Source: Caballeronia concitans (lineage in GTDB: Bacteria > Pseudomonadota > Gammaproteobacteria > Burkholderiales > Burkholderiaceae). From it: DNA of 64,000 bases. Shown piece after piece: positions 4,034 through 36,019 of the stretch (position 1 is the first letter of the stretch; each line of letters opens with the position of its first letter). Made by a program: the position numbers and the translations under genes. The stretch lies in assembly GCF_001544615.1 (NCBI RefSeq), contig NZ_FCNV02000010.1, positions 124,001-188,000 on the forward strand. Reading direction: 5' to 3'. The notes under the pieces were generated by a model. That model was not told the DNA's origin, did no database searches, and worked only from the letters and a program-made list of their open reading frames with translations.

Positions 4034-4660
4034 ATGATCCTGATCGGCCAATACGATTCCCCTTTCGTGCGACGCGTGGCCATCGCGTTGAGTCTGTACG
4101 GCATCGCGTTCGAGCATCGTCCGTGGTCCGTTTTCCGCGATGCCGACAAGATCGCGCCGTTCAATCCGCTCATCCGCGTGCCGACGCTCGTGCTCGATTC
4201 CGGCGACGTGCTGATCGAAAGCGCGATGATTCTCGACTATCTCGACGAGCAAGCGGGAGCTGCGCAGGCGCTGATCGCATCGGAAGGAGACGAGCGGCGC
4301 GAAGCGCTGAAAATATGCGCGCTCGCGACCGGTTTCGCCGACAAGGCCGTCGCGCTCGTCTACGAACGCGTGCTGCATAAGGAGACGTCGCAGGCGTGGG
4401 TGAGTCGTTGCACGGGTCAGGTCGAGCGCGTGCTGGATGCGCTCGAAGCCGACCGCGCCGCGCGTCCTTCGCCCTTCTGGTTCGGCGACGCGATCGGTCA
4501 CGCGGACATCGCCGTGGCATGCGCGCTGCGTTTCGCGCGCGAGGCGCATGCGCCGATTTTCGCGGGCGCGCGCTGGCCGGCGCTGATCGCGCATGGCGAC
4601 CGCTGCGAGGCGCTCGACGTGTTTCAGTCGATCGTGCAGCCGTTCAATCCGCCGAAGTGA
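4034..4660 (+). CDS. Glutathione S-transferase family protein
   Basis: A 208-residue protein with the thioredoxin-fold N-terminal GST domain (MILIGQYDSPFVRRVAIAL, then RVPTLVLDSGDVLIESAMIL, the glutathione-contacting cis-Pro and E-S/T motif) and an all-helical C-terminal domain. Length is normal. It starts 35 bp after the MFS stop and ends 6 bp before the convergent tsaD stop. No strong Shine-Dalgarno is seen (GGAGCGCGCGC before ATG). The physiological substrate is unknown. Confidence 0.88.
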   Translation: MILIGQYDSPFVRRVAIALSLYGIAFEHRPWSVFRDADKIAPFNPLIRVPTLVLDSGDVLIESAMILDYLDEQAGAAQALIASEGDERREALKICALATGFADKAVALVYERVLHKETSQAWVSRCTGQVERVLDALEADRAARPSPFWFGDAIGHADIAVACALRFAREAHAPIFAGARWPALIAHGDRCEALDVFQSIVQPFNPPK

Positions 4661-4666
4661 GAGCGA

Positions 4667-5695
4667 TCAGGCGCGCGCGAGTGAGGTCAAATCCCAGCGC
4701 GGCTTCACGGTGAACGCGTAGTCGCGCACGGCCTGCTCGGGCCAGCGCGCGAGCCGCAGCGCGCCCGCGAGCGCGATCATCGCGCCGTTGTCGGTGCAGA
4801 GCGACAAATCGGGATAGTGGACATCGAAGCGCCGCTTCTTCGCCGCCGCCGACAGCGCCTCGCGCAATTGCCGGTTCGCGCCGACGCCGCCCGCGACGAC
4901 CAGCCGCTTCAGCCCCGTCTTCTTGAGCGCCGCGAGCGATTTCGCGACGAGCACGTCCACCGCGGCATCGACGAAACCGCGCGCCAGATCCGCCTTCGCC
5001 TGCTCGCAGACGTTCGCGCCGAGCTTGCGGCTGTGCGTCAGCACGGCGGTTTTCAGGCCGCTGAAGCTGAAATCGAGATCGCCGGAATGGAGCATGGGGC
5101 GCGGCAGCGCGACCGCGCCCGGCGTGCCGAATTCCGCCAGCCGCGAGACTTCCGGCCCGCCCGGATAGCCGAGGCCGAGCAGCTTCGCGGTCTTGTCGAA
5201 GGCTTCGCCGGCGGCGTCGTCGAGCGTTTCGCCGAGCGTCTCGTAGACGCCCACGTCGGTCACGCGCATCAACTGCGTGTGTCCGCCCGACACGAGCAGC
5301 GCGACGAACGGAAACGGCGGCGGCGCGTCGACGAGAAGCGGCGAGAGCAGATGACCTTCGAGATGATGGATGCCGACCGTCGGCTTGTCCCACGCCATCG
5401 CGAGCGCGTTGGCGATACTCGCGCCGACGAGCAGCGCGCCCGCGAGCCCCGGCCCTTGCGTGAACGCGATGGCGTCAATATCGGCGCGCGCCACCTTCGC
5501 TTCGCCCATCACCTGTTCGAGCAGCGGCAGCGCCCGGCGGATGTGGTCGCGCGAAGCGAGTTCCGGCACGACGCCGCCGTACTCGCGATGCATCGCGATC
5601 TGCGAATGCAGCGCATGCGAAAGCAGGCCGCGCCCGGTGTCGTAGAGGGCGAGGCCGGTTTCGTCGCAGGAACTTTCGATGCCGAGAACGAGCAT
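4667..5695 (-). CDS. tsaD: tRNA N6-threonylcarbamoyladenosine transferase
   Basis: The 342-residue TsaD/Gcp/Kae1 protein transfers the threonylcarbamoyl group to A37 of ANN-decoding tRNAs, working with TsaB, TsaC and TsaE. The N-terminus [16 protein letters not shown] is the ASKHA ATPase phosphate-1 motif. The metal-binding motif [16 protein letters not shown] and the later GHTQL and [10 protein letters not shown] segments are all present. Length is normal. It is divergent from the flavoprotein gene at 5758. Confidence 0.96.
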
Positions 5696-19217: not shown

Positions 19218-20739
19218 GTTCGCTGCCGCGTAGGCAGCTTAGAAACTTTGCTTGGATGTCCTGCTCGATCTGATGCTGTTCGCTGCCGCGTAGGCAGCTT
19301 AGAAAGCCATCGCACTCGAAGTCTGTTCCACGTCCGCCGTTCGCTGCCGCGTAGGCAGCTTAGAAAGCCTCGTGATCGCCAGATAGATAGATAGCGGCGT
19401 TCGCTGCCGCGTAGGCAGCTTAGAAATCGAAGGAAATTCATCGTGCGCGCGTCCGTCGAGTTCGCTGCCGCGTAGGCAGCTTAGAAAATTAGAACGACCG
19501 AAACGCTCGCTCGAGGCACGTTCGCTGCCGCGTAGGCAGCTTAGAAAACTAGCGTCAGACAAATCATGGAAGCGATCGTGTTCGCTGCCGCGTAGGCAGC
19601 TTAGAAAACCTGCGCCAACACAACCACGCCGTCGTGCGCGTTCGCTGCCGCGTAGGCAGCTTAGAAATGCCCGACGGATTTCCTGAAGAACCCGAGCAAG
19701 TTCGCTGCCGCGTAGGCAGCTTAGAAAGTCAGCCCCATCACGTTGCTGAACAGGTGGTCGTTCGCTGCCGCGTAGGCAGCTTAGAAACGCCCGCTGCCGC
19801 ATCATCGCCATGCGTGAGAGTTCGCTGCCGCGTAGGCAGCTTAGAAACATGGAAAACGTCGTGCTGGGACTGGCTAACGGTTCGCTGCCGCGTAGGCAGC
19901 TTAGAAAATCCCGGCAATTTGGATTTTCGCTGCCGCGCTGTTCGCTGCCGCGTAGGCAGCTTAGAAACGCTCTTGCTCCGCGCTCAGTGCGACCGCCTGG
20001 TTCGCTGCCGCGTAGGCAGCTTAGAAATGCAACACATCGGGGCGCGCAAGCCGCAGATAGTTCGCTGCCGCGTAGGCAGCTTAGAAACACACGTGCGGCG
20101 TGCGGCGCCACGCAACGAGGTTCGCTGCCGCGTAGGCAGCTTAGAAAAACTTGCGGTTGGCCTTGTTCCGCGCCGTCTTGTTCGCTGCCGCGTAGGCAGC
20201 TTAGAAAATGAAAGCAGGAAGAACGATCCAAATCAGCGCGTTCGCTGCCGCGTAGGCAGCTTAGAAAGGTCGTCGCCGAGATGCCCGACGACGGTTGCTC
20301 GTTCGCTGCCGCGTAGGCAGCTTAGAAAAATGAGCCAGCAGCAAACCAAGAAGAAGATCCGTTCGCTGCCGCGTAGGCAGCTTAGAAAACAAGGTCGCGA
20401 GCTACGCGAGCGACAACAACGTTCGCTGCCGCGTAGGCAGCTTAGAAATTTCGAGTCGGACGACGACGACCGGCAGCAGGGTTCGCTGCCGCGTAGGCAG
20501 CTTAGAAAGATGCCGATACGTTCGTTGTCGCCGCCGTGAAGTTCGCTGCCGCGTAGGCAGCTTAGAAACTCTGAGGTGATCTGATAGATCGGCTCCGCGC
20601 GTTCGCTGCCGCGTAGGCAGCTTAGAAATGCTGCGCCTCTGGGCGATCAAGACCGGGCGCGTTCGCTGCCGCGTAGGCAGCTTAGAAATTCGAGGCGCAG
20701 CGCGCGCAGTTGCAGCAAGAGTTCGCTGCCGCGTAGGCA
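19218..20739 (+). CRISPR. Type I-F CRISPR array 1 (25 full repeats plus one truncated)
   Basis: 28-bp repeats start at 19218 and recur every 60-61 bp to 20661, with 32-33 bp spacers. Each repeat reads GTTCGCTGCCGCG, then TAGGCAGCTTAGAAA. The stem CTGCC/GGCAG marks type I-F (Cas6f substrate), and the eight bases after it are CTTAGAAA. All 25 complete repeats look identical. A 26th at 20721 stops after 19 bases (…GTAGGCA) and runs straight into a terminase gene fragment. The leader side is 19050-19217, so transcription is on the plus strand. Confidence 0.97.
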
Positions 20740-21401
20740 ACCGCTGTGGCGGGCTGGTCCTCGATGATGTGATGAGAGGACGCGAGCAGGCCGACTCGGA
20801 GGTGATCCGCGACAAGGTGTACGACGCCTATGAGGACGATCTCAAGACGCGGCTCATGCCCGGCGGCTGGATCGTCTACATAGGTACGCGCTGGCACGAG
20901 GATGATCTGGCCGGTCGTATCCTGCCCGAGGGCTGGCACGGCGCGAGCGGTCGCATTGCGTGCCGCGACGGCAACACGTGGGAGGTGCTGTGCCTGCAGG
21001 CGCGGTGCGAGACTGACACCGATCCGTTGGATCGTGAGAAGGGCGAATATCTGTGGCCCGAATGGTTCGACCGGAAACACTGGGCGCAGTACGAATCGAA
21101 CCCGCGCACGTGGGCGTCGCTGTATCAGCAGATGCCAGTGCCGCCCGAGGGCGATCTGTTCAAGCCCGAGCGGATCGGCATCGTGGACATCGTGCCGAGC
21201 ACCTACATCGAATGGGTGCGCGGCTGGGATCTGGCGAGCGTCGAGGGCGACGGCGACTGGACGGCCGGCGCGAAATTGGGGCGGCTCGCAGACGGACGTT
21301 ACGTGATCGGCGACATGACGCGCGGGCGGTGGGGGCCGGACCGGCGCGACGCGATCATCGCGGCCACCGCACAACTTGACGGCGTGGGCACCGTCTCGTG
21401 A
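20740..21401 (+). pseudogene. Phage terminase large subunit, internal fragment
   Basis: The frame reads GGLVLDDVMRGREQADSEVI, then GGWIVYIGTRWHEDDLAGRI, YLWPEWFDRKHWAQYE, TWASLYQQMP and VRGWDLASVEGDGDWTAG. These correspond to the end of the ATPase part and the start of the RNase-H-like nuclease of TerL, including WD in the nuclease. The ATPase N-terminus is missing: the fragment begins inside the truncated CRISPR repeat at 20739/20740. The C-terminus is also lost after DAIIAATAQLDG near 21388, where the neighbouring minus-strand gene remnant begins. Confidence 0.8.
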
Positions 21402-22966: not shown

Positions 22967-25940
22967 GTTCGCTGCCGCGTAGGCAGCTGAGAAAGACAAT
23001 TTACGGCTGCGTCACCGATCCGACGCGTTCGCTGCCGCGTAGGCAGCTGAGAAAAATGGAAGGGATTCGAGCAGCGGCACGGCATCGTTCGCTGCCGCGT
23101 AGGCAGCTGAGAAAAATCAGGCACGCACACGGCCCTTTCACCAGGCGTTCGCTGCCGCGTAGGCAGCTGAGAAAGCTCTGGCGCATGTCGAGCTGCCACC
23201 ACGAACGTTCGCTGCCGCGTAGGCAGCTGAGAAAAGAACTTCGAGCAGAGTTTCCTGACGCACGTAGTTCGCTGCCGCGTAGGCAGCTGAGAAAAGCAGA
23301 TGGCAACCTCCGTTTGAGAAACCAAATGTTCGCTGCCGCGTAGGCAGCTGAGAAAGTGAATCAACTCGATGCCGACTTCCGTGCGAAGTTCGCTGCCGCG
23401 TAGGCAGCTGAGAAAAGTTGAAGCGCTGGTTATCAGCCGGTGAACCGGTTCGCTGCCGCGTAGGCAGCTGAGAAAGCGATGCGGACGCCAAGGTACTCGC
23501 CGCGACGGTTCGCTGCCGCGTAGGCAGCTGAGAAAACGGCCCGCGCTCGATGCAGACGTACGCGCTGGTTCGCTGCCGCGTAGGCAGCTGAGAAAAGCTC
23601 GCGCTGAATCACAAGCTGAAAGGCATGGTTCGCTGCCGCGTAGGCAGCTGAGAAATTGCGCCGCTGCGTGTGGAACGGCCCACACAATGTTCGCTGCCGC
23701 GTAGGCAGCTGAGAAACGGCGCTTTGCGCGCGATAGAACAGCTTCGTCGTTCGCTGCCGCGTAGGCAGCTGAGAAAAATACGGAGGGTCGAGATAAAAGA
23801 ACGTGTGCGTTCGCTGCCGCGTAGGCAGCTGAGAAAGCTGCGCTCGTCGGCGTCCATCTGAATGCGCTGTTCGCTGCCGCGTAGGCAGCTGAGAAAGCCC
23901 AGCGCAGCGCGATCCACGCGAGACCCCGGTTCGCTGCCGCGTAGGCAGCTGAGAAATCGAATCCGAGATCGCGCAGATCAGGGGGAGGCGTTCGCTGCCG
24001 CGTAGGCAGCTGAGAAATCGAATCCGAGATCGCGCAGATCGGGGGGAGGCGTTCGCTGCCGCGTAGGCAGCTGAGAAAGATCAATGGGCGCTCACGAACG
24101 GCTCCGAATAGTTCGCTGCCGCGTAGGCAGCTGAGAAAGTCGCCCCAGAGTGGGTTTCGATGGCGACGCAGTTCGCTGCCGCGTAGGCAGCTGAGAAAAA
24201 TCGAGCAATCCGCGAGCAAGGAGGAGCCGAGTTCGCTGCCGCGTAGGCAGCTGAGAAAGAACACTTGGCAGACTCCACTGGAGTTCAAGAGTTCGCTGCC
24301 GCGTAGGCAGCTGAGAAACGCTCGAGTCCGGTGCTCGCACCGCCGCCACCGTTCGCTGCCGCGTAGGCAGCTGAGAAATGCCGCCCAAGCCTTCCGTGAA
24401 GTCGGCGCACGTTCGCTGCCGCGTAGGCAGCTGAGAAAACCACGTCCCCATGTCGATTCCCATGCCCGCGGTTCGCTGCCGCGTAGGCAGCTGAGAAACT
24501 GCAACGCGCGTTTGATCTTCGCTACTTCTCGGTTCGCTGCCGCGTAGGCAGCTGAGAAAAACGCCTGAATCGAAGCTGCACGAACCGCCTTGTTCGCTGC
24601 CGCGTAGGCCGCTGAGAAAAGCATGAGCGCAGAGCCGGTTTATCTGATTGAGTTCGCTGCCGCGTAGGCAGCTGAGAAAAGTTCCGCAACAGTTTCCGCA
24701 CTCTTGCGAGTGTTCGCTGCCGCGTAGGCAGCTGAGAAAGCAGACGTCGATCATCTTTCAGCGCTTGACCGGTTCGCTGCCGCGTAGGCAGCTGAGAAAA
24801 CATCGCTCAACCGCCATGCGCGAAACCGCGCGTTCGCTGCCGCGTAGGCAGCTGAGAAAAGCATGAGCGCAGAGAATCGCGGCGCGAGTGGGTTCGCTGC
24901 CGCGTAGGCAGCTGAGAAACGAACGCCCTGCCACGATTCAACGGCGAAACCGTTCGCTGCCGCGTAGGCAGCTCAGAAAAATAACCCCTTCGAGCGCAGC
25001 ATCTAGCACAAGTTCGCTGCCGCGTAGGCAGCTGAGAAAGCGTCATCAGATGCACGTGCGCGGGATCGTAAGTTCGCTGCCGCGTAGGCAGCTGAGAAAT
25101 GCTGCGCTGACGTTCGCAGTCGCCGCGCCGGGTTCGCTGCCGCGTAGGCAGCTGAGAAATTCGTGACATAGAGCGCTCGATGCTGCACATGGTTCGCTGC
25201 CGCGTAGGCAGCTGAGAAATGATCCGTGAGCGGGTCCGTCTTGTAGCTGTAGTTCGCTGCCGCGTAGGCAGCTGAGAAAAACATCAAACGGCGGCACGCC
25301 TGTCGAGCCGCGTTCGCTGCCGCGTAGGCAGCTGAGAAAGGCAGATTCACGTTCTCGCAGCCGACTTGATAGTTCGCTGCCGCGTAGGCAGCTGAGAAAA
25401 ATACGAAACCGCGCATATCCACCTCAGCTTTGTTCGCTGCCGCGTAGGCAGCTGAGAAAGCACGTAACCGGAGAACAGTGAAATGAACGAAGTTCGCTGC
25501 CGCGTAGGCAGCTGAGAAATTCGTCTGCTGACATGGACTACGAACTGTTTCGTTCGCTGCCGCGTAGGCAGCCGAGAAAGAGGCAGACGAAACCGCGCTC
25601 GCGTTCGACGATGTTCGCTGCCGCGTAGGCAGCTGAGAAAAGAGGCAATCAGCAATCGAATCCGCCTGCTGTGTTCGCTGCCGCGTAGGCAGCTGAGAAA
25701 GTGCACTCCATCAGCTTCGGCGTCGTGCGCAGGTTCGCTGCCGCGTAGGCAACTGAGAAAGTGATCGATAAGCTCTTCCGCGCCGCGCGCGCGTTCGCTG
25801 CCGCGTAGGCAGCTGAGAAAGATCAACGCGAGCTCGGTTGCGCTGTACGCGGGTTCGCTGCCGCGTAGGCAGCTGAGAAAGGCTCCGCGCTCGCGGATGC
25901 GGCGAGAAGGGCGTTCGCTGCCGCATAGGCAGCTAAGAAC
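22967..25940 (+). CRISPR. Type I-F CRISPR array 2 (50 repeats, 49 spacers)
   Basis: 28-bp repeats start at 22967 and recur every 60-61 bp; the last is at 25913. Repeats have the CTGCC/GGCAG stem and the handle CTGAGAAA, one base different from array 1. Variant repeats occur at 24592 (GGCCGCTGAG), 24952 (GCTCAGAAA), 25552 (GCCGAGAAA), 25733 (GCAACTGAG) and at the end (25913, CATAGG…CTAAGAAC), so variation concentrates in the leader-distal half. Spacers 23957-23989 and 24018-24050 are near-identical. The distal end faces cas1, 164 bp away. Confidence 0.98.
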
Positions 25941-26104: not shown

Positions 26105-27097
26105 ATGGAATCCATACGCTCATCAGATCTAAAAACCATTCTGCATTCCAAACGAGCTAACCTTTACTACCTCGAACACTGCCGCGTTTTAGTAAATGGC
26201 GGCCGCGTCGAATACGTGACCGATGCGGGCAAAAGAAATCTCTACTGGAATATCCCCATCGCTAACACGACGAGCATCCTGCTCGGCACCGGCACATCCG
26301 TGACACAGGCCGCGATGCGCGAACTCGCCAAAGCTGGCGTGCTCGTTGGCTTTTGCGGCGGTGGCGGCACGCCGCTATTCAGCGCCACGGAGATCGATGT
26401 CGACATTGCCTGGATATCGCCGCAAAGCGAATACCGGCCGACGGAGTATCTGCAAGCGTGGGTGCGCTTCTGGTTCGATGATGCGTTGCGCTCTCGCGCG
26501 GCAAGGCATTTGCAAACGAGCCGCCTCGCACGATTGCAGCAGGCCTGGAGCACGCGTGCGATGCGCGAGGCAGGCTTCACCGTGAACGAGGACCGACTGC
26601 ATTCGCTCGTGCAGCAATTTCGCAGCCAGATCGATGCCGCGCCGGACCCTGCAACGCTCTTGCTCACCGAAGCGCGTCTCACCAAAGCCCTGTTCAAACT
26701 CGCGGTGGACACGGTCGGCTACGGTGATTTCACACGCGCGAAGCGCGGTAGCGGAACCGACGCGGCCAACCGCTTTCTGGATCACGGCAATTACCTGGCT
26801 TATGGCCTCGGCGCGACGGCCACGTGGGTGCTGGGTCTGCCGCAAGGGCTGGCCGTCCTCCATGGCAAGACGCGACGCGGCGGCCTGGTGTTCGACGCAG
26901 CCGATCTGATCAAGGACGCAGTGATCCTTCCGCAAGCCTTCCTGTCGGCGATGCGCGGCGACGAGGAGCAGCAGTTCCGGCGTCACTGCATCGAAGCCAT
27001 GACGCGCGATGAATCGCTCGACTTCATGATAGACACGCTCAAGGCGACCGCCGTCGATACCGCGCTTCTCGCGCAAACATCGGACGCACGATCATGA
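26105..27097 (+). CDS. cas1: Type I-F CRISPR integrase Cas1
   Basis: 330 residues, the usual I-F length. Cas1 is the metal-dependent integrase that inserts spacers at the leader end, working with the Cas2 domain of Cas2-3. Likely metal ligands are Glu189 (LLLTEARLTKALFK), His253 (AVLHGKTRRGG) and Asp264/Asp267 (LVFDAADLIKD). The I-F start MESIRSSDLKTILHSKRANL is preceded by GGCAGGAG. The stop overlaps the cas2-3 ATG by four bases (ATGA), so the pair is translationally coupled. Cas1 is intact although its partner is interrupted. Confidence 0.97.
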   Translation: MESIRSSDLKTILHSKRANLYYLEHCRVLVNGGRVEYVTDAGKRNLYWNIPIANTTSILLGTGTSVTQAAMRELAKAGVLVGFCGGGGTPLFSATEIDVDIAWISPQSEYRPTEYLQAWVRFWFDDALRSRAARHLQTSRLARLQQAWSTRAMREAGFTVNEDRLHSLVQQFRSQIDAAPDPATLLLTEARLTKALFKLAVDTVGYGDFTRAKRGSGTDAANRFLDHGNYLAYGLGATATWVLGLPQGLAVLHGKTRRGGLVFDAADLIKDAVILPQAFLSAMRGDEEQQFRRHCIEAMTRDESLDFMIDTLKATAVDTALLAQTSDARS

Positions 27098-30000
27098 AGG
27101 TACTGTTCGTCGCCCAATGCACCAAACGCGCGCTGACCGAAACGCGACGCATCCTCGACCAGTTCGCCGAGCGGCGCGGCGAGCGCACGTGGCAGACACC
27201 CATCACTCAGGCCGGGCTCGATACGGTGCGCAAGTTGTTGCGCCAAAGCGCGAGAAAGAACACTGCCGTCGCCTGTCACTGAATACGCGGACGCGACCAT
27301 AGTGAGTTGTTGTGGCTCGTCGGCGATGGCCGGCAATTCAACGAAGAAGGCGCGGTACCCACGAACACGACGCAGAACGACATGCTGCGCAGCGAAGACG
27401 AAAGCGCGTGGCATCGATTGCAGGAGATATCGGCCCTGACCGCGCTGGCCGCTCTACTGCATGATCTCGGCAAAGCGACACGCGCATTCCAGGAGCGGCT
27501 GCTCGCGCCTCACGCGAAGGAGACCAACCATTATCGCCATGAATGGGTGTCGGTGCGCCTGTTTCAGGCGTTCGTCGGCGACGCGAAGGACGACGCCGAC
27601 TGGCTGACGCGTCTCGCATCGTGCGCGGATGCACAGGTCGATTCGAAGCGATTCGAAGCGCAATGGCTCGATCATCGGTCAGGCCGCTTGTTGCGCGACG
27701 GACTAGATGACGATGCCAAAGCGCACAAGCCTTTCGCGACACTGCCGCCGCTGGCGCAGGCGGTAAGCTGGCTGATATTGACGCATCATCGAATGCCTTG
27801 CAAGCCCGTGAAGCAAGCAGACGGAAGCTCGGATGCCGATATCGAAGAGCCACGACGTATTTGGCGTCGGTTCGGCGCCAGCATGAATGGACTCGACAGA
27901 CATGACCTCGGCAAAATGCTTCAAAAAATCGACGCGGATTGGAACGAGCCTCGCGAGGTTGTCGAGATCGCCAGGGTGAAAACTTACTGGCAATTTAGGT
28001 TTGGTTTGCCCGTCGCCACTGCGTCATGGCGCAAGCAGGCGGCGCGGTATGCGCGCAAGCTACTGGGATCGCCGCGCGCAACGTCCACGAATGCCACGCT
28101 CGACGATCCCTTCGTGATGCACGTGTCCCGTCTATGTTTGATGCTGGCCGACCATCATTACTCCAGCATCGGTGACGAAGCGCGTCGCCGAGCTTACCTC
28201 AATCCCGGCTATCCGTTGTATGCGAATACGCGTCCTGATCGAAGCGACGATGCATCATCGCACGGCGCATCGAAGCGCATTCTGAATCAGACGCTCGACG
28301 AGCATTTGCTTGGCGTGCAAGCGCATGCATCGCTCATTGCGCGTTCGCTACCGACGCTGACGCGCAGCCTTCCTGCGCTGCGGAATCATCGAGGCCTCAA
28401 GAAGCGCAATACCGATTCGCGTTTTCAGTGGCAGGACCGGGCCGCCGATCTGGCGATCGGCATGCGAACACGTGCGGCTGAGCACGGTGCGTTCGTGATC
28501 AACATGGCGTCGACGGGGTGCGGCAAGACACTGGGCAACGCCCGCATCATGAATGCGCTCGCGGACCCCAGGCGAGGCATGCGTTGTGCGTTTGTCATCG
28601 GCCTGCGCACGCTGACCATGCAAAGCGGACGCGTCTTCCAGCATGATCTCGGATTGACCGATGACCAACTCGCTATCAAGGTTGGCGGCACGGCGAGCCG
28701 TGCGCTATTCGAGTACTTCGAGGCTCAGGCAGAAGCCACGGGTTCATCGTCGAGTCAGGCCTTGCTCGACGAAGGAGGGCACGTTACTTTCGAGGGCAAC
28801 GTTCATCATCCGCTTCTGCAGCGATTGACCGATGATTCGCAGGTGCGCTCGCTGATCGCCGCGCCGATCCTTGCTTGTACCGTCGATCATCTGACGCCCG
28901 CGACCGAGAGCCTGCGAGGCGGACGCCAGATCGCACCGATGCTGAGACTCATGACCGGCGATCTCGTGCTGGACGAACCGGATGACTTCGACATGGCCGA
29001 TCTGCCCGCGTTGACGCGACTCGTGCATTGGGCAGGGCTTTTGGGCGCACGCGTATTGTTGTCTTCGGCGACGTTACCGCCGGCGCTCGTGCAGGGGCTG
29101 TTCCTGGCTTATCTGGATGGCCGCAGTCACTATCAGCGCAACCGGGGCGAACGGCCCGATGAATCGCCGCGCGTGGCCTGCATGTGGGTGGATGAATTCG
29201 CGCAATCCCACGCCGATTGCGCGGACGCCGCCAGCTTCGTGAGCGGACATGACGCGTTCGTGCAGAAGCGCGTGGCGCAACTTGCCAATGCCGACGTGCG
29301 ACGACGTGCCGAACTCGTGAAGCTGCCGATCAAAGCCTGGCGGGAGATGTCCAAAGGCGAGCGACGCGGGGCATTCGCTTCGTTGGCGCTGCGGAGCGCG
29401 TGGGCCTTGCATCGGAACGATGGCAACCACGTCGTCGATCCGGTGACTGGCAAGCGCGTGAGCCTTGGCATCATTCGCATGGCGAATATCGGCCCTTTGT
29501 TCGATGTCGCGCGGGCCATGTATCGACAAGGTGCGCCGGCGCCCGGCGTGCGCGTGCATTTGTGCGTGTATCACGCTCAATTTCCGCTTCTCGCGCGCTC
29601 GCACATCGAGCAACAACTCGATGCGGTGTTCGATCGTCGCTCTGCGGGAAGTGGCGGCGATCCGGCGTTGCAACATCCTTCGGTGCGAGCGCTGCTCGAT
29701 CGATATCCCGAGTCCGATCACCTGTTCGTGGTGCTCGCTTCGCCCGTCTGTGAAGTAGGGAGAGACTGGTCCGGTGAGTACGCGATTGCGGAACCGTCAT
29801 CCATGCGTTCGCTGATTCAGCTTGCAGGGCGTGTGCGGCGTCATCGCGGTGGTCCGGTGGCGTGTACCAACATGATGATCTTCGATACGAACCTGCGGTA
29901 TTTCGAGCGCGGTGCATCGACTGCGCCAGTATTTTGCAAGCCCGGCTTTGAAATGCGATACATCCGTCCGAAGCCAGTGGGTTCGCCAGCTTCACTGCAA

Positions 30001-30624
30001 GAATCCGGCATCGATTTTCATCTTGAGTCTCACCGATTGAGCAGGCTGCTGAATCTTCCCGAAGAGCCGGGGCAGTGGCCCATCGATGCGCGGCCGCGCA
30101 TCCGCCAACGTGAGAACCTGGAACCTACAAGTAGCTTGGTTGATCTCGAACATGGTCGCATGCGTGACACGATGCTTCCGCGTGATGAGTCGAGCGACGT
30201 CTTCACACCCGTTTCGCGCGACGCGACGCGGCATTGGCATAGCGAAAGCCCGCTATGGCTGACCGGCGTGCTGCCGCAAGTGCAGCCTTTTCGAAAGGAC
30301 TCGCAGAAACGAGAAGACGTCGTGCTGTTTCCCTCGGAGGACGAGGACGAGATGATTCTTCATCGCGTCATTGATCGGAACGGACGCGAACCGAAGACTT
30401 ACGTGGATCGCCGCGATCTGCTTTTGCAGATACCGGATTCAGAGCTAAATGGGCCGGCTATCGGTCCCTGGTTTCATATCGACCTGATGGAGTTAATTCG
30501 GCAGTGGGCCGGTGCACACGATCAAAGCCTGAATGACAGCGCCCGCAATGTCGCGACTGTCAGTTTGCCTGTTTCGGAGCAAGGGTGGCGGTATCACGCG
30601 TTGCTGGGTTTCAGTAAGGAGTGA
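27094..30624 (+). pseudogene. cas3: Type I-F Cas2-Cas3 fusion gene interrupted by an in-frame TGA
   Basis: Read through, the frame is about 1176 codons. The N-terminal Cas2 part (MKVLFVAQCTKRALTETRRI, onward to KNTAVACH) stops at TGA 27280-27282 after 62 residues. The very next codons continue the family sequence (IRGRDHSELLWLVGDGRQF), where relatives have Trp (TGG) at the stop. The Cas3 part is otherwise open: HD nuclease (ALLHDLGKA, NHYRHEWVS), helicase Walker A (NMASTGCGKTLGNA), DEAD-box-like VLDEPDD and motif VI region (LIQLAGRVRRHRGG). Restart could occur at TTG 27307, but no Shine-Dalgarno is seen. Cas3 normally degrades Cascade-bound DNA, and the Cas2 part is needed for spacer acquisition. 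Confidence 0.92.
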
Positions 30625-30706
30625 GTTCTGGCTGCCTACGCGGCAGCGAAATAACGGAGAGTCATCGAATGACCATTCTTTCTCAGCTACCTATGCGGCG
30701 GCAAAG
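30624..30706 (-). CRISPR. Degenerate two-repeat mini-CRISPR in the cas operon, opposite strand
   Basis: Read on the minus strand: a degenerate repeat at 30706-30679 (ends GTAGCTGAGAAA; five differences from the array 2 consensus), a 27-nt spacer-like segment 30678-30652 beginning GAATGGTC, and a second repeat at 30651-30624 with an intact CTGCC/GGCAG stem but a degraded tail (CCAGAACT, lacking the CTGAGAAA handle). The first repeat keeps the exact handle CTGAGAAA, though its stem is weakened (C-A mismatch and G-U pair). It starts at the cas2-3 stop and is inverted relative to all three arrays. The layout is that of creA/CreR-type RNAs. Confidence 0.7.
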
Positions 30707-30865
30707 CAGAAAAAATAGCTCGTAAGTTGCTCAATTGCTGATTAGATCGATGAGTAATTTCTGATATTTTGTTAATTCACTGAAATTTTCTCATATGAAT
30801 TTTTATTTGGGCGGAATGGCGATGTAGGATAAGGATTCACTTTCACCTGCACGCAAGGAGGCGGC

Positions 30866-30952
30866 GTGTTCAAATTATTAACTCTTGGCAATCGTCGCGC
30901 GCTTGCCCGTCGGTTGCCGAGGATTGAAGGCGGTAAGTCGGCGGACCTTTGA
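30866..30952 (+). CDS. 28-codon micro-ORF with strong SD and tandem rare TTA codons
   Basis: GTG at 30866 lies four bases after AAGGAGG (30855-30861), the strongest Shine-Dalgarno in this gap. The peptide begins MFKLLTLGNRRALARRLPRI and ends at TGA 30950-30952. Codons 4 and 5 are TTA TTA, rare leucine codons in this GC-rich genome. CreT toxins described in other CRISPR loci combine a strong ribosome site with tandem rare codons near the start. The peptide itself is basic and amphipathic. Whether it is expressed is unknown. Confidence 0.3.
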   Translation: MFKLLTLGNRRALARRLPRIEGGKSADL

Positions 30953-31050: not shown

Positions 31051-31082
31051 GCTCTCTGATGAGGATCAGAGAGCCTCTTTTC
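31051..31082 (+). terminator. Intrinsic terminator between cas2-3 and csy1
   Basis: GCTCTCTGAT pairs perfectly with ATCAGAGAGC (10 bp, loop GAGG), followed by CTCTTTTC. It lies 48 bp before csy1, so csy1-csy4 probably need their own promoter between here and 31130, or are expressed by read-through. Confidence 0.75.
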
Positions 31083-31129: not shown

Positions 31130-32521
31130 ATGAGTGGAAAGAATATTATTAAAAATAACTGTAGCTTCAGAGTATTGATCAACGAATTCCTGCGCGACCG
31201 CCTCCAGACCAAGCTCGACAAGCTCGCGCCAGACGATCCGAAACGCGCGGATCTCATCGCGCAACACGAGCGCGTTCCGTGGCTCGAAGATGCGGCGCGG
31301 CGCGTGAAGCAGATCCAGGCTGTGACGCATTCGTTGAAGCCCATTCACCCGGATGCGCGCGGCACCAATCTTTATGTGACGCCCACCGAACTTCCAGTGC
31401 TTGACGTGGTCGGCAGTCACATACTGGGCAATCACTTTTCCACGGACGTAGTCGGTAACGCTGCCGCACTCGACGTACACAGGTTGCTGAAACTGGAGAT
31501 GAACGGACGCACGCTGCTCAAAGCGCTCATCGATAACGATCCGGACGCCGTGCAGTCACTCGATGACGACCCTGCGAAAGCCCAATCATTGCGCGAGGCA
31601 TTCACGAGTCTGACATCGAAACGGGAAGGCGGTGCTGCATCGCACGTTCGCGCGAAGCAGTTGTACTGGCTCGTAGGTGGCGATGCTGAAGACGACGCTC
31701 AGTACCATCTCATCTCGCCGCTTTTCGCTACGTCGCTCATCCATGTGGTGCATGCGGAACAGCAGGACGCACGATTCGGCCAGGCGAACAAGCGGGCGCG
31801 TCATGCACGTCGCGATGGTTTGCCGCATGAGGGCGTCTACCGCGAATACCGCGATCTTGCCGTTCAAAAGCTGGGTGGCACGCAACCACAAAATGTGTCC
31901 CAACTCAATGCTGAACGCGGCGGGATCAACTACCTGTTGTCGTCCTTGCCGCCGACGTGGGAAACCCGGCGCAACGTTCTTCCGGCTAACGTGAGTTCGA
32001 TTTTCGAAAGGGCTTTTGGTGCACGTCCTCTGGTGCGCGTCCTGATACGCCAGATGCAGGATCTTCTACTGAGCGATCGCCCCAATAACCTGCAAGCCAG
32101 GAAGCGCCTTAAAGACCTCGAGAATCGAATAATCGACGAACTCGTCGCGTATGCGGGCGAACTGTTGAAGGAACCTCCGGGTTGGACACGCGACCCACGC
32201 TTCGCCGAACTGGCCGATGAAGAGAAACTATGGCTCGACCCTCTACGGTCCGAGTTGCCGGAAGAAAGTGAGTTCGCCAGCCGCTGGCTCTTCATGGACT
32301 GGCCTGCTCAAATCGGCGAGCGTTTTGGAAAGTGGCTCACGGCGAAGATGGCCAACAAGCTGGATCACAACGTATCGCGCAACTGGAGAGATGCACTTCT
32401 GAGTGACAAGAGCAGCTACATGGAACACCTGCGCATGCTGCGTGAACGGCTTGATGCACCGAAGTACATCCCGGTGCGAAAGACCCATGACGAGCTGATC
32501 TCTCTGCGAGAACGAAAATGA
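31130..32521 (+). CDS. csy1: Type I-F Cascade subunit Csy1 (Cas8f)
   Basis: 463 residues. Csy1 forms with Csy2 the tail of the Csy complex that binds the crRNA 5' handle and recognises the PAM. The family segment AARRVKQIQAVTHSLKPIHP followed by DARGTNLYVTP is present, as is a conserved C-terminal region (WRDALLSDKSSYMEHLRMLR). The ATG at 31130 has TTAGGATAGCAA upstream. Length is slightly above the P. aeruginosa protein. The stop overlaps csy2 by ATGA. Confidence 0.96.
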   Translation: MSGKNIIKNNCSFRVLINEFLRDRLQTKLDKLAPDDPKRADLIAQHERVPWLEDAARRVKQIQAVTHSLKPIHPDARGTNLYVTPTELPVLDVVGSHILGNHFSTDVVGNAAALDVHRLLKLEMNGRTLLKALIDNDPDAVQSLDDDPAKAQSLREAFTSLTSKREGGAASHVRAKQLYWLVGGDAEDDAQYHLISPLFATSLIHVVHAEQQDARFGQANKRARHARRDGLPHEGVYREYRDLAVQKLGGTQPQNVSQLNAERGGINYLLSSLPPTWETRRNVLPANVSSIFERAFGARPLVRVLIRQMQDLLLSDRPNNLQARKRLKDLENRIIDELVAYAGELLKEPPGWTRDPRFAELADEEKLWLDPLRSELPEESEFASRWLFMDWPAQIGERFGKWLTAKMANKLDHNVSRNWRDALLSDKSSYMEHLRMLRERLDAPKYIPVRKTHDELISLRERK

Positions 32522-35391: not shown

Positions 35392-36019
35392 GTTCGCTGC
35401 CGCGTAGGCAGCTGAGAGAAGCTCGTTGAGCGCGGCGCGGGCGCGGCGCAGGTTCGCTGCGGCGTAGACAGCTGAGAAATTTCGATCATCCAAGACGTCT
35501 GTCAGCGGATCGTTCGCTGCCGCGTAGGCAGCTGAGAAAGGCGAGACTTCAATCTCGAAAGTGGACGATATGTTCGCTGCCGCGTAGGCAGCTGAGAAAA
35601 ACGGCACGGTGTACGGCTCTCGCGCTGCACGGTTCGCTGCCGCGTAGGCAGCTGAGAAAGCCGGGGATTTCGTGACGTACAGCATCGAACTGTTCGCTGC
35701 CGCGTAGGCAGCTGAGAAATCAAGACGGCCCGCGCGATCGGCGAGCATCCAGTTCGCTGCCGCGTACGCAGCTGAGAAATGACATGCAAACCGGCCCGTT
35801 TTCCACATACTGTTCGCTGCCGCGTAGGCAGCTGAGAAAAGGTCCAGCACTGATTCACGGCGGATAACCCCGTTCGCTGCCGCGTAGGCAGCTGAGAATA
35901 TTCCCCCCAACACAGTTCATGCTTGCGAATTGTTTGCTGCCGCATAGGCAGTTGAGGAAGACGAGAAGATCGAGGGTTGCATCGGGACAATATTTGTTGC
36001 CGGCTGGGCAACTGAGAAA
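35392..36019 (+). CRISPR. Type I-F CRISPR array 3 (11 repeats, decaying at both ends)
   Basis: Repeats start at 35392, 35452 and every 60 bp to 35992. The first (ends GAGAGA), the second (CTGCGGCGTAGACAG) and the seventh (GTACGCAG) are altered. The last three are progressively worse: 35872 ends GAGAATA, 35932 reads GTTTGCTGCCGCATAGGCAG then TTGAGGAA, and 35992 reads ATTTGTTGCCGGCTGGGCAA. Intact copies share the CTGAGAAA handle with array 2. Mutated leader-proximal repeats suggest no recent spacer acquisition. Confidence 0.95.

What the first reader, a model, noticed from the sequence alone, without database searches (positions are those of the whole stretch)
30624..30706. Inverted, degenerate mini-CRISPR directly after cas2-3
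Two repeat-like units in reverse orientation flank a 27-nt spacer-like segment in the gap before csy1. The first keeps the CTGAGAAA handle and the second keeps the Cas6f hairpin, the minimum for one processed RNA. Degenerate single-spacer mini-arrays inside cas operons are the hallmark of creA and CreR RNAs, which guide Cascade to repress a toxin or the cas promoter. A stray array fragment would more likely keep array orientation. I searched the nearby promoters by eye for a CC-PAM seed match and found none convincing.
Basis: partly seen in the sequence, partly recalled or inferred. Interest (0 to 1): 0.85.

Follow-up and report, generated by a model that had tools for sequence, protein, structure and literature searches.

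The report
Inverted creA-like mini-CRISPR beside toxin-like ORF
A degenerate two-repeat CRISPR between the cas2-3 and csy1 genes is an antitoxin-type RNA gene that also occurs in many related CRISPR systems; in this genome it seems to have lost its target, and a spacer in the ordinary CRISPR array next door may have taken over the job of silencing a small toxin-like RNA.

Summary
The mini-array is real: two degenerate repeats (30679-30706, 30624-30651, minus strand) flank a 27-nt spacer between cas2-3 and csy1. It is no stray fragment: at least 26 of 61 type I-F loci examined (window included) have such an inverted mini-array, one repeat keeping the handle, the other the Cas6f hairpin. In 24 of the 26 the spacer significantly matches a CC-flanked site in the same gap, mismatches clustering at positions 6, 12 and 18, as fits a Csy effector. 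This is the anatomy of published I-F CreTA in Acinetobacter. Twelve loci, window included, also have a creT-like mini-ORF: strong ribosome site plus tandem rare codons, here TTA-TTA.

The window is the outlier: its mini-array spacer has no recognisable target. But one of its 84 array spacers (35900-35931) matches the region upstream of the creT-like ORF at all ten seed positions, with CC, on the expected strand; 0 of 2,306 foreign spacers do. Chance is about 0.3%. Best reading: a CreTA-type module whose antitoxin guide moved into the main array. Promoter, toxicity and takeover are inferred. New variant of a known kind.

The parts
30679..30706 (-). psiR2 of the mini-array: degenerate repeat with the 5' handle CTGAGAAA
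   Evidence: 23 of 28 to the array repeat; C.A mismatch and G.U in the stem
30652..30678 (-). 27-nt spacer of the mini-array; no recognisable target
30624..30651 (-). psiR1 of the mini-array: degenerate repeat with intact Cas6f hairpin, handle lost
   Evidence: 21 of 28; folds at -12 kcal/mol
30801..30817 (-). predicted protospacer of the array-borne guide; PAM CC on the minus strand = GG at 30818-30819
   Evidence: seed positions 1-5 and 7-11 all match spacer 35900-35931; mismatches at 6 and 12
30825..30830 (+). possible -10 element TAGGAT of the creT-like gene (weak; -35-like TTTATT at 30802)
   Evidence: no promoter at the 9-of-12 threshold
30855..30861 (+). Shine-Dalgarno sequence AAGGAGG of the creT-like mini-ORF
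30866..30952 (+). creT-like ORF: GTG TTC AAA TTA TTA ..., 28 codons; a strong predicted stem-loop begins just after the TTA codons
   Evidence: a pattern of this kind arises in 5 of 2000 shuffles of the gap
31051..31074 (+). terminator-like hairpin before csy1
   Evidence: 1 found, 0.5 expected in shuffles
35872..35899 (+). array-3 repeat giving the handle of the array-borne guide (last base A to T)
35900..35931 (+). spacer 9 of 10 of the array beside cas6f: candidate relocated antitoxin guide
   Evidence: 10 of 10 seed match with CC to the gap; 0 of 2306 foreign spacers
35932..35959 (+). degenerate trailer-end repeat with intact hairpin downstream of that spacer
   Evidence: 24 of 28
27307..30624 (+). 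cas2-3 gene (I-F)
   Evidence: Pfam Cas3 domains
31130..32521 (+). csy1 gene, start of the effector operon
   Evidence: Pfam Cas_Csy1

Best explanation
The gap between cas2-3 and csy1 holds an I-F CreTA-type toxin-antitoxin RNA module. On the plus strand a small RNA gene (creT-like) combines a strong ribosome-binding site with two consecutive TTA codons and a following stem-loop; if expressed, it would trap ribosomes and the rare tRNA-Leu(UAA). The inverted mini-array is its creA antitoxin gene by descent: two degenerate repeats that would yield one crRNA-like guide for the Csy complex. In this lineage that guide no longer matches the region upstream of the toxin. The match is now supplied by spacer 9 of 10 of the array beside cas6f: partial (seed-only) complementarity would let Csy sit on the promoter region and block transcription without recruiting Cas3. 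Losing Csy, or that end of the array, would release the toxin. Shown by sequence: the anatomy, its conservation, the guide-target pairing in relatives, the array-spacer match. Inferred: promoter, processing, repression, toxicity, and that the array spacer replaced the mini-array.
For: Inverted mini-arrays in the same gap in at least 26 of 61 I-F loci (window included), with opposite conservation in the two repeats. 24 of 26 spacers have a significant CC-flanked target in the gap; in the 21 strongest, identity is 103/105 at positions 1-5, 4/21 at 6, 100/105 at 7-11, 6/21 at 12, 4/21 at 18. creT-like mini-ORFs in 12 loci, each of which has a mini-array; TTA-TTA in four (window, L058, L061, L090). 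TTA is the rarest sense codon in 28 window ORFs, 36 of 13,276 codons; one tRNA-Leu(UAA) gene seen among the loci run. Array spacer 35900: ten of ten seed positions plus CC; 67 of 20,000 shuffles of the gap and 17 of 20,000 of the part upstream of the ORF do as well; 0 of 2,306 foreign spacers and 0 of 1,689 wrong-register pieces match. Target strand and placement, upstream of the ORF, agree with the relatives. Among the loci scanned, no other array spacer reached 10 of 10 on its own gap.
Against: One locus, no close relative to show conservation: the spacer is in 1 of 58 genomes of the genus and the gap DNA in 1 of 58, in both cases the window's own. A 0.3% chance match was found after several other scans. 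Two other seed-plus-CC matches of window spacers exist elsewhere in the 64 kb. The promoter is weak: no sigma-70 hit. The window's ORF lacks the CAC/CAT codon that 9 of the 11 other mini-ORFs have before the rare pair, and runs to 28 codons, so the toxin may be dead. Beyond position 12 the array spacer hardly matches (11 of 15 scored positions in all).
Confidence: 0.52

Rival explanations
1. Both halves are decaying: the creT-like gene lost its promoter or essential codons, so the mini-array was free to lose its target, and the array-spacer match is chance.
For: Mini-array spacer has no target; C.A mismatch in its stem; weak promoter; the His codon found in 9 of 11 other mini-ORFs is missing; in the published Acinetobacter module a synonymous change of that codon (CAT) abolished toxicity (PMC10097628, section 10).
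Against: Ribosome site, tandem TTA and a strong stem-loop are all still present; the array-spacer match has chance 0.3% and the expected place and strand.
Confidence: 0.28
2. The mini-array is active but retargeted: its guide acts on another gene in trans, or on the same promoter through a non-canonical match.
For: Both processing elements survive. Its seed GAATGG occurs at 30814-30819 next to the predicted promoter with CG instead of CC, within the same 7-bp site (30813-30819) that the start of the array spacer's target and its PAM occupy on the other strand.
Against: That match is not above chance (best any-PAM score in the gap p about 0.6). The genome scan (up to 3 mismatches in 16 fixed bases, 34 sites) listed no CC site with fewer than two seed mismatches; sites with a good seed but a poorer remainder would be missed.
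Confidence: 0.15
3. CreR only: the guide represses the csy operon promoter to tune Cas levels, with no toxin involved.
For: 14 of 26 mini-array loci show no creT-like ORF under the rules used, and in L020, L022 and L024 the target covers a TTGACT box in front of csy1.
Against: The window does have a creT-like ORF and a terminator-like hairpin between target and csy1; no CC site with fewer than two seed mismatches to the mini-array spacer was listed in the window.
Confidence: 0.04
4. A stray array fragment in reverse orientation.
For: It lacks a target in this genome.
Against: Same place, orientation and division of labour between repeats in 26 loci.
Confidence: 0.01

Closest known systems
I-F CreTA of Acinetobacter sp. 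WCHA45, LoGeW2-3, ANC3789 (Wang et al. 2023, PMC10097628; sections 6, 8, 10, 15 read, other passages seen)
   Same: cas3-csy1 gap of about 400 bp; mini-array with two degenerate repeats, divergent from a Shine-Dalgarno-led mini-ORF; CC-flanked partial target upstream of the ORF. LoGeW2-3 was used here as a positive control (L069, 10 of 10 seed).
   Different: In the window the mini-array spacer has no target, a main-array spacer does; the rare pair is TTA-TTA, where L069 has AGA-AGG. The Acinetobacter toxin is reported to depend on its RNA sequence, ribosome site and a hairpin, not on its peptide; no rare-codon effect is described in the sections read.
Haloarchaeal CreTA (H. hispanica AGA-AGA, H. 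hubeiense AUA-AUA; PMC8501985, passages seen)
   Same: Mini-ORF with two consecutive rare codons, efficient translation start, stem-loop; creA genes with degenerate repeats.
   Different: Archaeal; no UUA toxin appears in the passages seen; guide lies in creA, not in an array.
CreR, cas-regulating RNAs (review PMC12737573, passages seen; primary 2023 paper recalled, not seen)
   Same: crRNA-like guide matching a cas promoter, as the toxin-less relatives L019, L020, L024 appear to have.
   Different: The window has a toxin-like ORF and no recognisable cas-promoter match from the mini-array.

Membership tests
creA antitoxin gene (the mini-array itself) | Spacer-like segment between one or two degenerate repeats beside cas genes | tested here: met
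creA antitoxin gene (the mini-array itself) | PAM-flanked partial complementarity to the creT promoter region | tested here: not met
   window p = 0.24; 24 of 26 loci met, window and L026 not
creA antitoxin gene (the mini-array itself) | Processing by Cas6 into a guide | not testable with these tools
   hairpin and handle present; stem weakened
CreTA module (creT-like ORF plus array spacer 35900) | Small RNA gene with strong ribosome site and critical codons near the cas genes | tested here: met
   the His codon of 9 of 11 relatives is missing
CreTA module (creT-like ORF plus array spacer 35900) | Guide with PAM and partial (seed) match upstream of the ORF | tested here: met
CreTA module (creT-like ORF plus array spacer 35900) | Toxicity relieved by the Cascade/Csy-guide complex | not testable with these tools
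   needs bench work
CreR | Mini-CRISPR guide matching the cas promoter, generally without a toxin | tested here: not met
   no CC site with fewer than two seed mismatches listed in the window; toxin-like ORF present

The most novel reading that the evidence does not exclude
The antitoxin of a CRISPR-guarding toxin has migrated from its dedicated mini-array into the ordinary CRISPR array, so that an old trailer-end spacer is kept as an essential antitoxin and the array itself, not only the effector, becomes addictive; and the toxin is of a leucine (UUA-UUA) class found in at least four loci from different genera.
Probability: 0.45. Interest if true: 0.85.

Novelty: new variant of a known kind. 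Interest (0 to 1): 0.68.

Why it matters
It extends the I-F CreTA layout described in Acinetobacter to Burkholderiaceae and other families of the class searched, and shows toxin-bearing and apparently toxin-less versions side by side, so the passage between toxin control and cas self-control can be compared directly. The 6-nt mismatch rhythm gives a simple test for such guides. If the array spacer is the working antitoxin, it would be a reason why old trailer spacers persist, and a case of an immune-memory slot turned into an essential gene.

Tried and rejected
Target search for the mini-array spacer: gap, whole window and own genome gave nothing convincing. The best CC site, 30991 (7 of 10 seed), was rejected: p = 0.085 with plain shuffles, 0.28 and 0.24 with dinucleotide shuffles. 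A gapped resemblance between the spacer and 30814-30824 was seen by eye and not counted.

Phage origin of the two spacers: single viral-contig hits with wildcards at positions 6, 12 and 18 (L081; L082) lack a CC PAM and look like chance, since both unrelated patterns gave one hit each; a third pattern with CC fixed gave L083, not read further; phage and plasmid records gave only weak partial hits. The exact 20-mer of the mini-array spacer gave none in viral contigs.

Counting notes: the first target script crashed after 12 loci; L069 was read in the wrong register and corrected. L023 (handle lost) was dropped from the 26. L070 and L101 are off register in the stem table (L101 was shifted by one base). 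Duplicate loci (L021 = L001, L029 = L004, L030 = L003, L056 = L002) were dropped. The mini-ORF rule was run on 24 gaps and 32, a looser version on 11; L031, L057, L066 and L068 were not scanned for mini-ORFs. L061's mini-ORF was found only. L086 has a similar ORF with TCA-ATA, not counted among the twelve. Loci without a recognised array repeat may hide mini-arrays, so 26 of 61 is a lower bound.

Array spacers against their own gap: 22 loci, and those of the 32 loci in which the script recognised a real repeat. Besides the mini-array units themselves, one search listed two 10-of-10 entries (L098, L114) that are the DNA after psiR1 matching itself, and at least six 9-of-10 array-spacer matches (lists capped at three per locus).

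No claim of absence in print is made. Supplementary Data 2 of PMC10097628 (further I-F CreTA homologs) could not be read, so some relatives here may already be listed there.

Full report
Setting. The window (G000:C27:124001-188000) carries a complete type I-F locus: cas1 26105-27097, cas2-3 27307-30624, csy1 31130-32521, csy2, csy3 and cas6f to 35260, with arrays on the plus strand at 19218-20748, 22967-25940 and 35392-36019. A record of Caballeronia sp. M1242 has the length and match position of a contig of one same-genus genome (G049:C2, 1,320,836 bases), so the genus is taken to be Caballeronia.

Observation. Both repeat-like units and the 27-nt spacer are present as described, in reverse orientation. 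The handle-bearing unit scores 23 of 28 and the hairpin-bearing one 21 of 28 against the array repeat; the next-best minus-strand match in the gap is 14 of 28.

Relatives. Csy1 searches found matches in 9 of 58 genomes of the genus, 14 of 398 of the family, 4 of 144 and 2 of 65 of two further genera, 21 of 399 of the order and 34 of 369 of the class; these sets overlap, and not every match was fetched. One contig scan gave 4 loci and the plasmid collection 17 records, of which 2 further loci were used. After removing duplicates 61 loci were examined (list; some are fragments). At least 26, window included, have an inverted mini-array in the cas3-csy1 gap. The two repeats have opposite conservation: psiR1 keeps the hairpin (pairs 3 to 5 invariant in 26 of 26) and loses the handle; psiR2 keeps the handle while its stem changes by paired substitutions (pair 3: G-C 10, A-T 8, G-T 5, other 3; pair 5: C-G 19, T-A 4, G-C 1, C.A 2). 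That is what a gene for one Cas6f-processed guide should show.

Targets. For each of the 26 the spacer was compared with the CC-flanked sites in the gap (500 dinucleotide shuffles each). Twenty-one have 9 or 10 of 10 seed positions on the minus strand (p 0.004 or less). Three more are weaker or on the other strand (L106 p 0.002, L116 p 0.008, L061 p 0.022). L026 matches 17 of 17 but with CT instead of CC. The window has nothing (p 0.24). Over the 21, identity is 103 of 105 at positions 1-5, 4 of 21 at 6, 100 of 105 at 7-11, 6 of 21 at 12, 76 of 105 at 13-17 and 4 of 21 at 18. That every sixth guide base is flipped out in type I effectors is recalled knowledge; the rhythm fits it. In L020, L022, L024 and L058 the target covers a TTGACT box with the PAM directly beside it; in other loci no clear promoter box was seen at the target.

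Toxin-like ORF. A rule of strong Shine-Dalgarno, start codon and tandem rare codons found 8 of 24 gaps and 3 of 32; a looser look at 11 gaps added L061: twelve in all, each with a mini-array. Rare pairs: AGA-AGA (L001, L004, L062, L070, L087, L089), AGA-AGG (L069, the published Acinetobacter module), ATA-ATA (L028), TTA-TTA (window, L058, L061, L090). Per-gap chance was 1 to 24 of 2000 shuffles for the eight (window 5 of 2000); none was computed for the four found later. A strong hairpin followed by ATTCT recurs in L001, L062, L070, L087, L089 and L090; the window has a 12-pair stem at the same place followed by GATTGA. In 28 window ORFs (some of which overlap arrays and may be spurious) TTA is the rarest sense codon, 36 of 13,276; in the six cas genes it is 4 codons. 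The genome has 55 tRNA matches. ARAGORN was run on 34 loci holding them: 23 of the 30 returned loci and the eleven matches of 82 bases or more without a returned locus; one tRNA-Leu(UAA) gene was seen, and the remaining short matches were not all run. Against function: the window's ORF lacks the CAC/CAT codon that 9 of the 11 other mini-ORFs have before the rare pair, and does not stop for 28 codons (L090 also has no near stop).

The orphan and its replacement. Because the window's mini-array had no target, all 84 array spacers were tried. One, at 35900-35931, spacer 9 of 10 beside cas6f, matches 30801-30817 on the minus strand at all ten seed positions with CC, mismatching at 6 and 12, and hardly beyond. 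In 20,000 shuffles of the gap 67 gave any such match, and 17 when only the part upstream of the ORF is used. Of 2,306 spacers from the other loci none matches this gap, nor do 1,689 wrong-register pieces of the window's own spacers. Among the other loci scanned (22 with the window, and those with a recognised repeat) no array spacer reaches 10 of 10 on its own gap; at least six 9-of-10 matches occur in the set, where gaps are longer. The target has the strand and place seen in relatives. Its flanking repeats are degenerate, as at an array's trailer end, but keep the hairpins; the first two repeats of this array are also degenerate. Two further window spacers have 10-of-10 matches elsewhere in the 64 kb (3552 and 57304), which shows that chance matches of this kind do occur over long stretches.

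Reading. The layout equals that of the Acinetobacter I-F CreTA, where Csy plus CreA represses creT (PMC10097628, sections 6, 8, 10 and 15). The window's mini-array is creA by descent but fails the target test, so it is not filed as a working creA. The module as a whole works, most likely, like CreTA with an array-borne guide. The apparently toxin-less relatives look like CreR-type self-control of csy. None of the steps processing, binding, repression or toxicity was shown here.

Limits. No close relative of the gap or of the spacer exists in the 58 genomes of the genus, so the array-borne guide cannot be tested by covariation.

Noticed in passing
window 19218-20748 versus 22967-25940 and 35392-36019: Array 1 uses a repeat variant ending CTTAGAAA (25 copies) while arrays 2 and 3 mostly use CTGAGAAA.
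   Followed up: no
window 30813-30819: The mini-array seed GAATGG (plus strand, PAM CG) and the start of the array spacer's target with its PAM (minus strand, CC) fall on the same GGAATGG site; also a split 11-base resemblance between the mini-array spacer and this site.
   Followed up: partly
L062, L070, L087, L089, L090, L001 downstream of the mini-ORF: A strong hairpin followed by ATTCT recurs after the mini-ORF, a possible conserved 3' element of creT RNAs.
   Followed up: partly
L026: cas1 and the first part of cas3 (to about residue 688) give no match in the stretch fetched, and the mini-array spacer matches the csy promoter region 17 of 17 but without a CC PAM.
   Followed up: no
L070 (Vitreoscilla filiformis pVF1) 4486-5520: A hypothetical gene, a VapC-family toxin gene and an XRE-family regulator are annotated between cas3 and the creTA-like element.
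   Followed up: no
L086 7541-7587: Mini-ORF with strong ribosome site and TCA-ATA in the place of the tandem rare codons.
   Followed up: no
L003 (L030): The cas3 match ends at residue 297, about 550 bases before csy1, with no further cas3 match between; the mini-array was not found.
   Followed up: no
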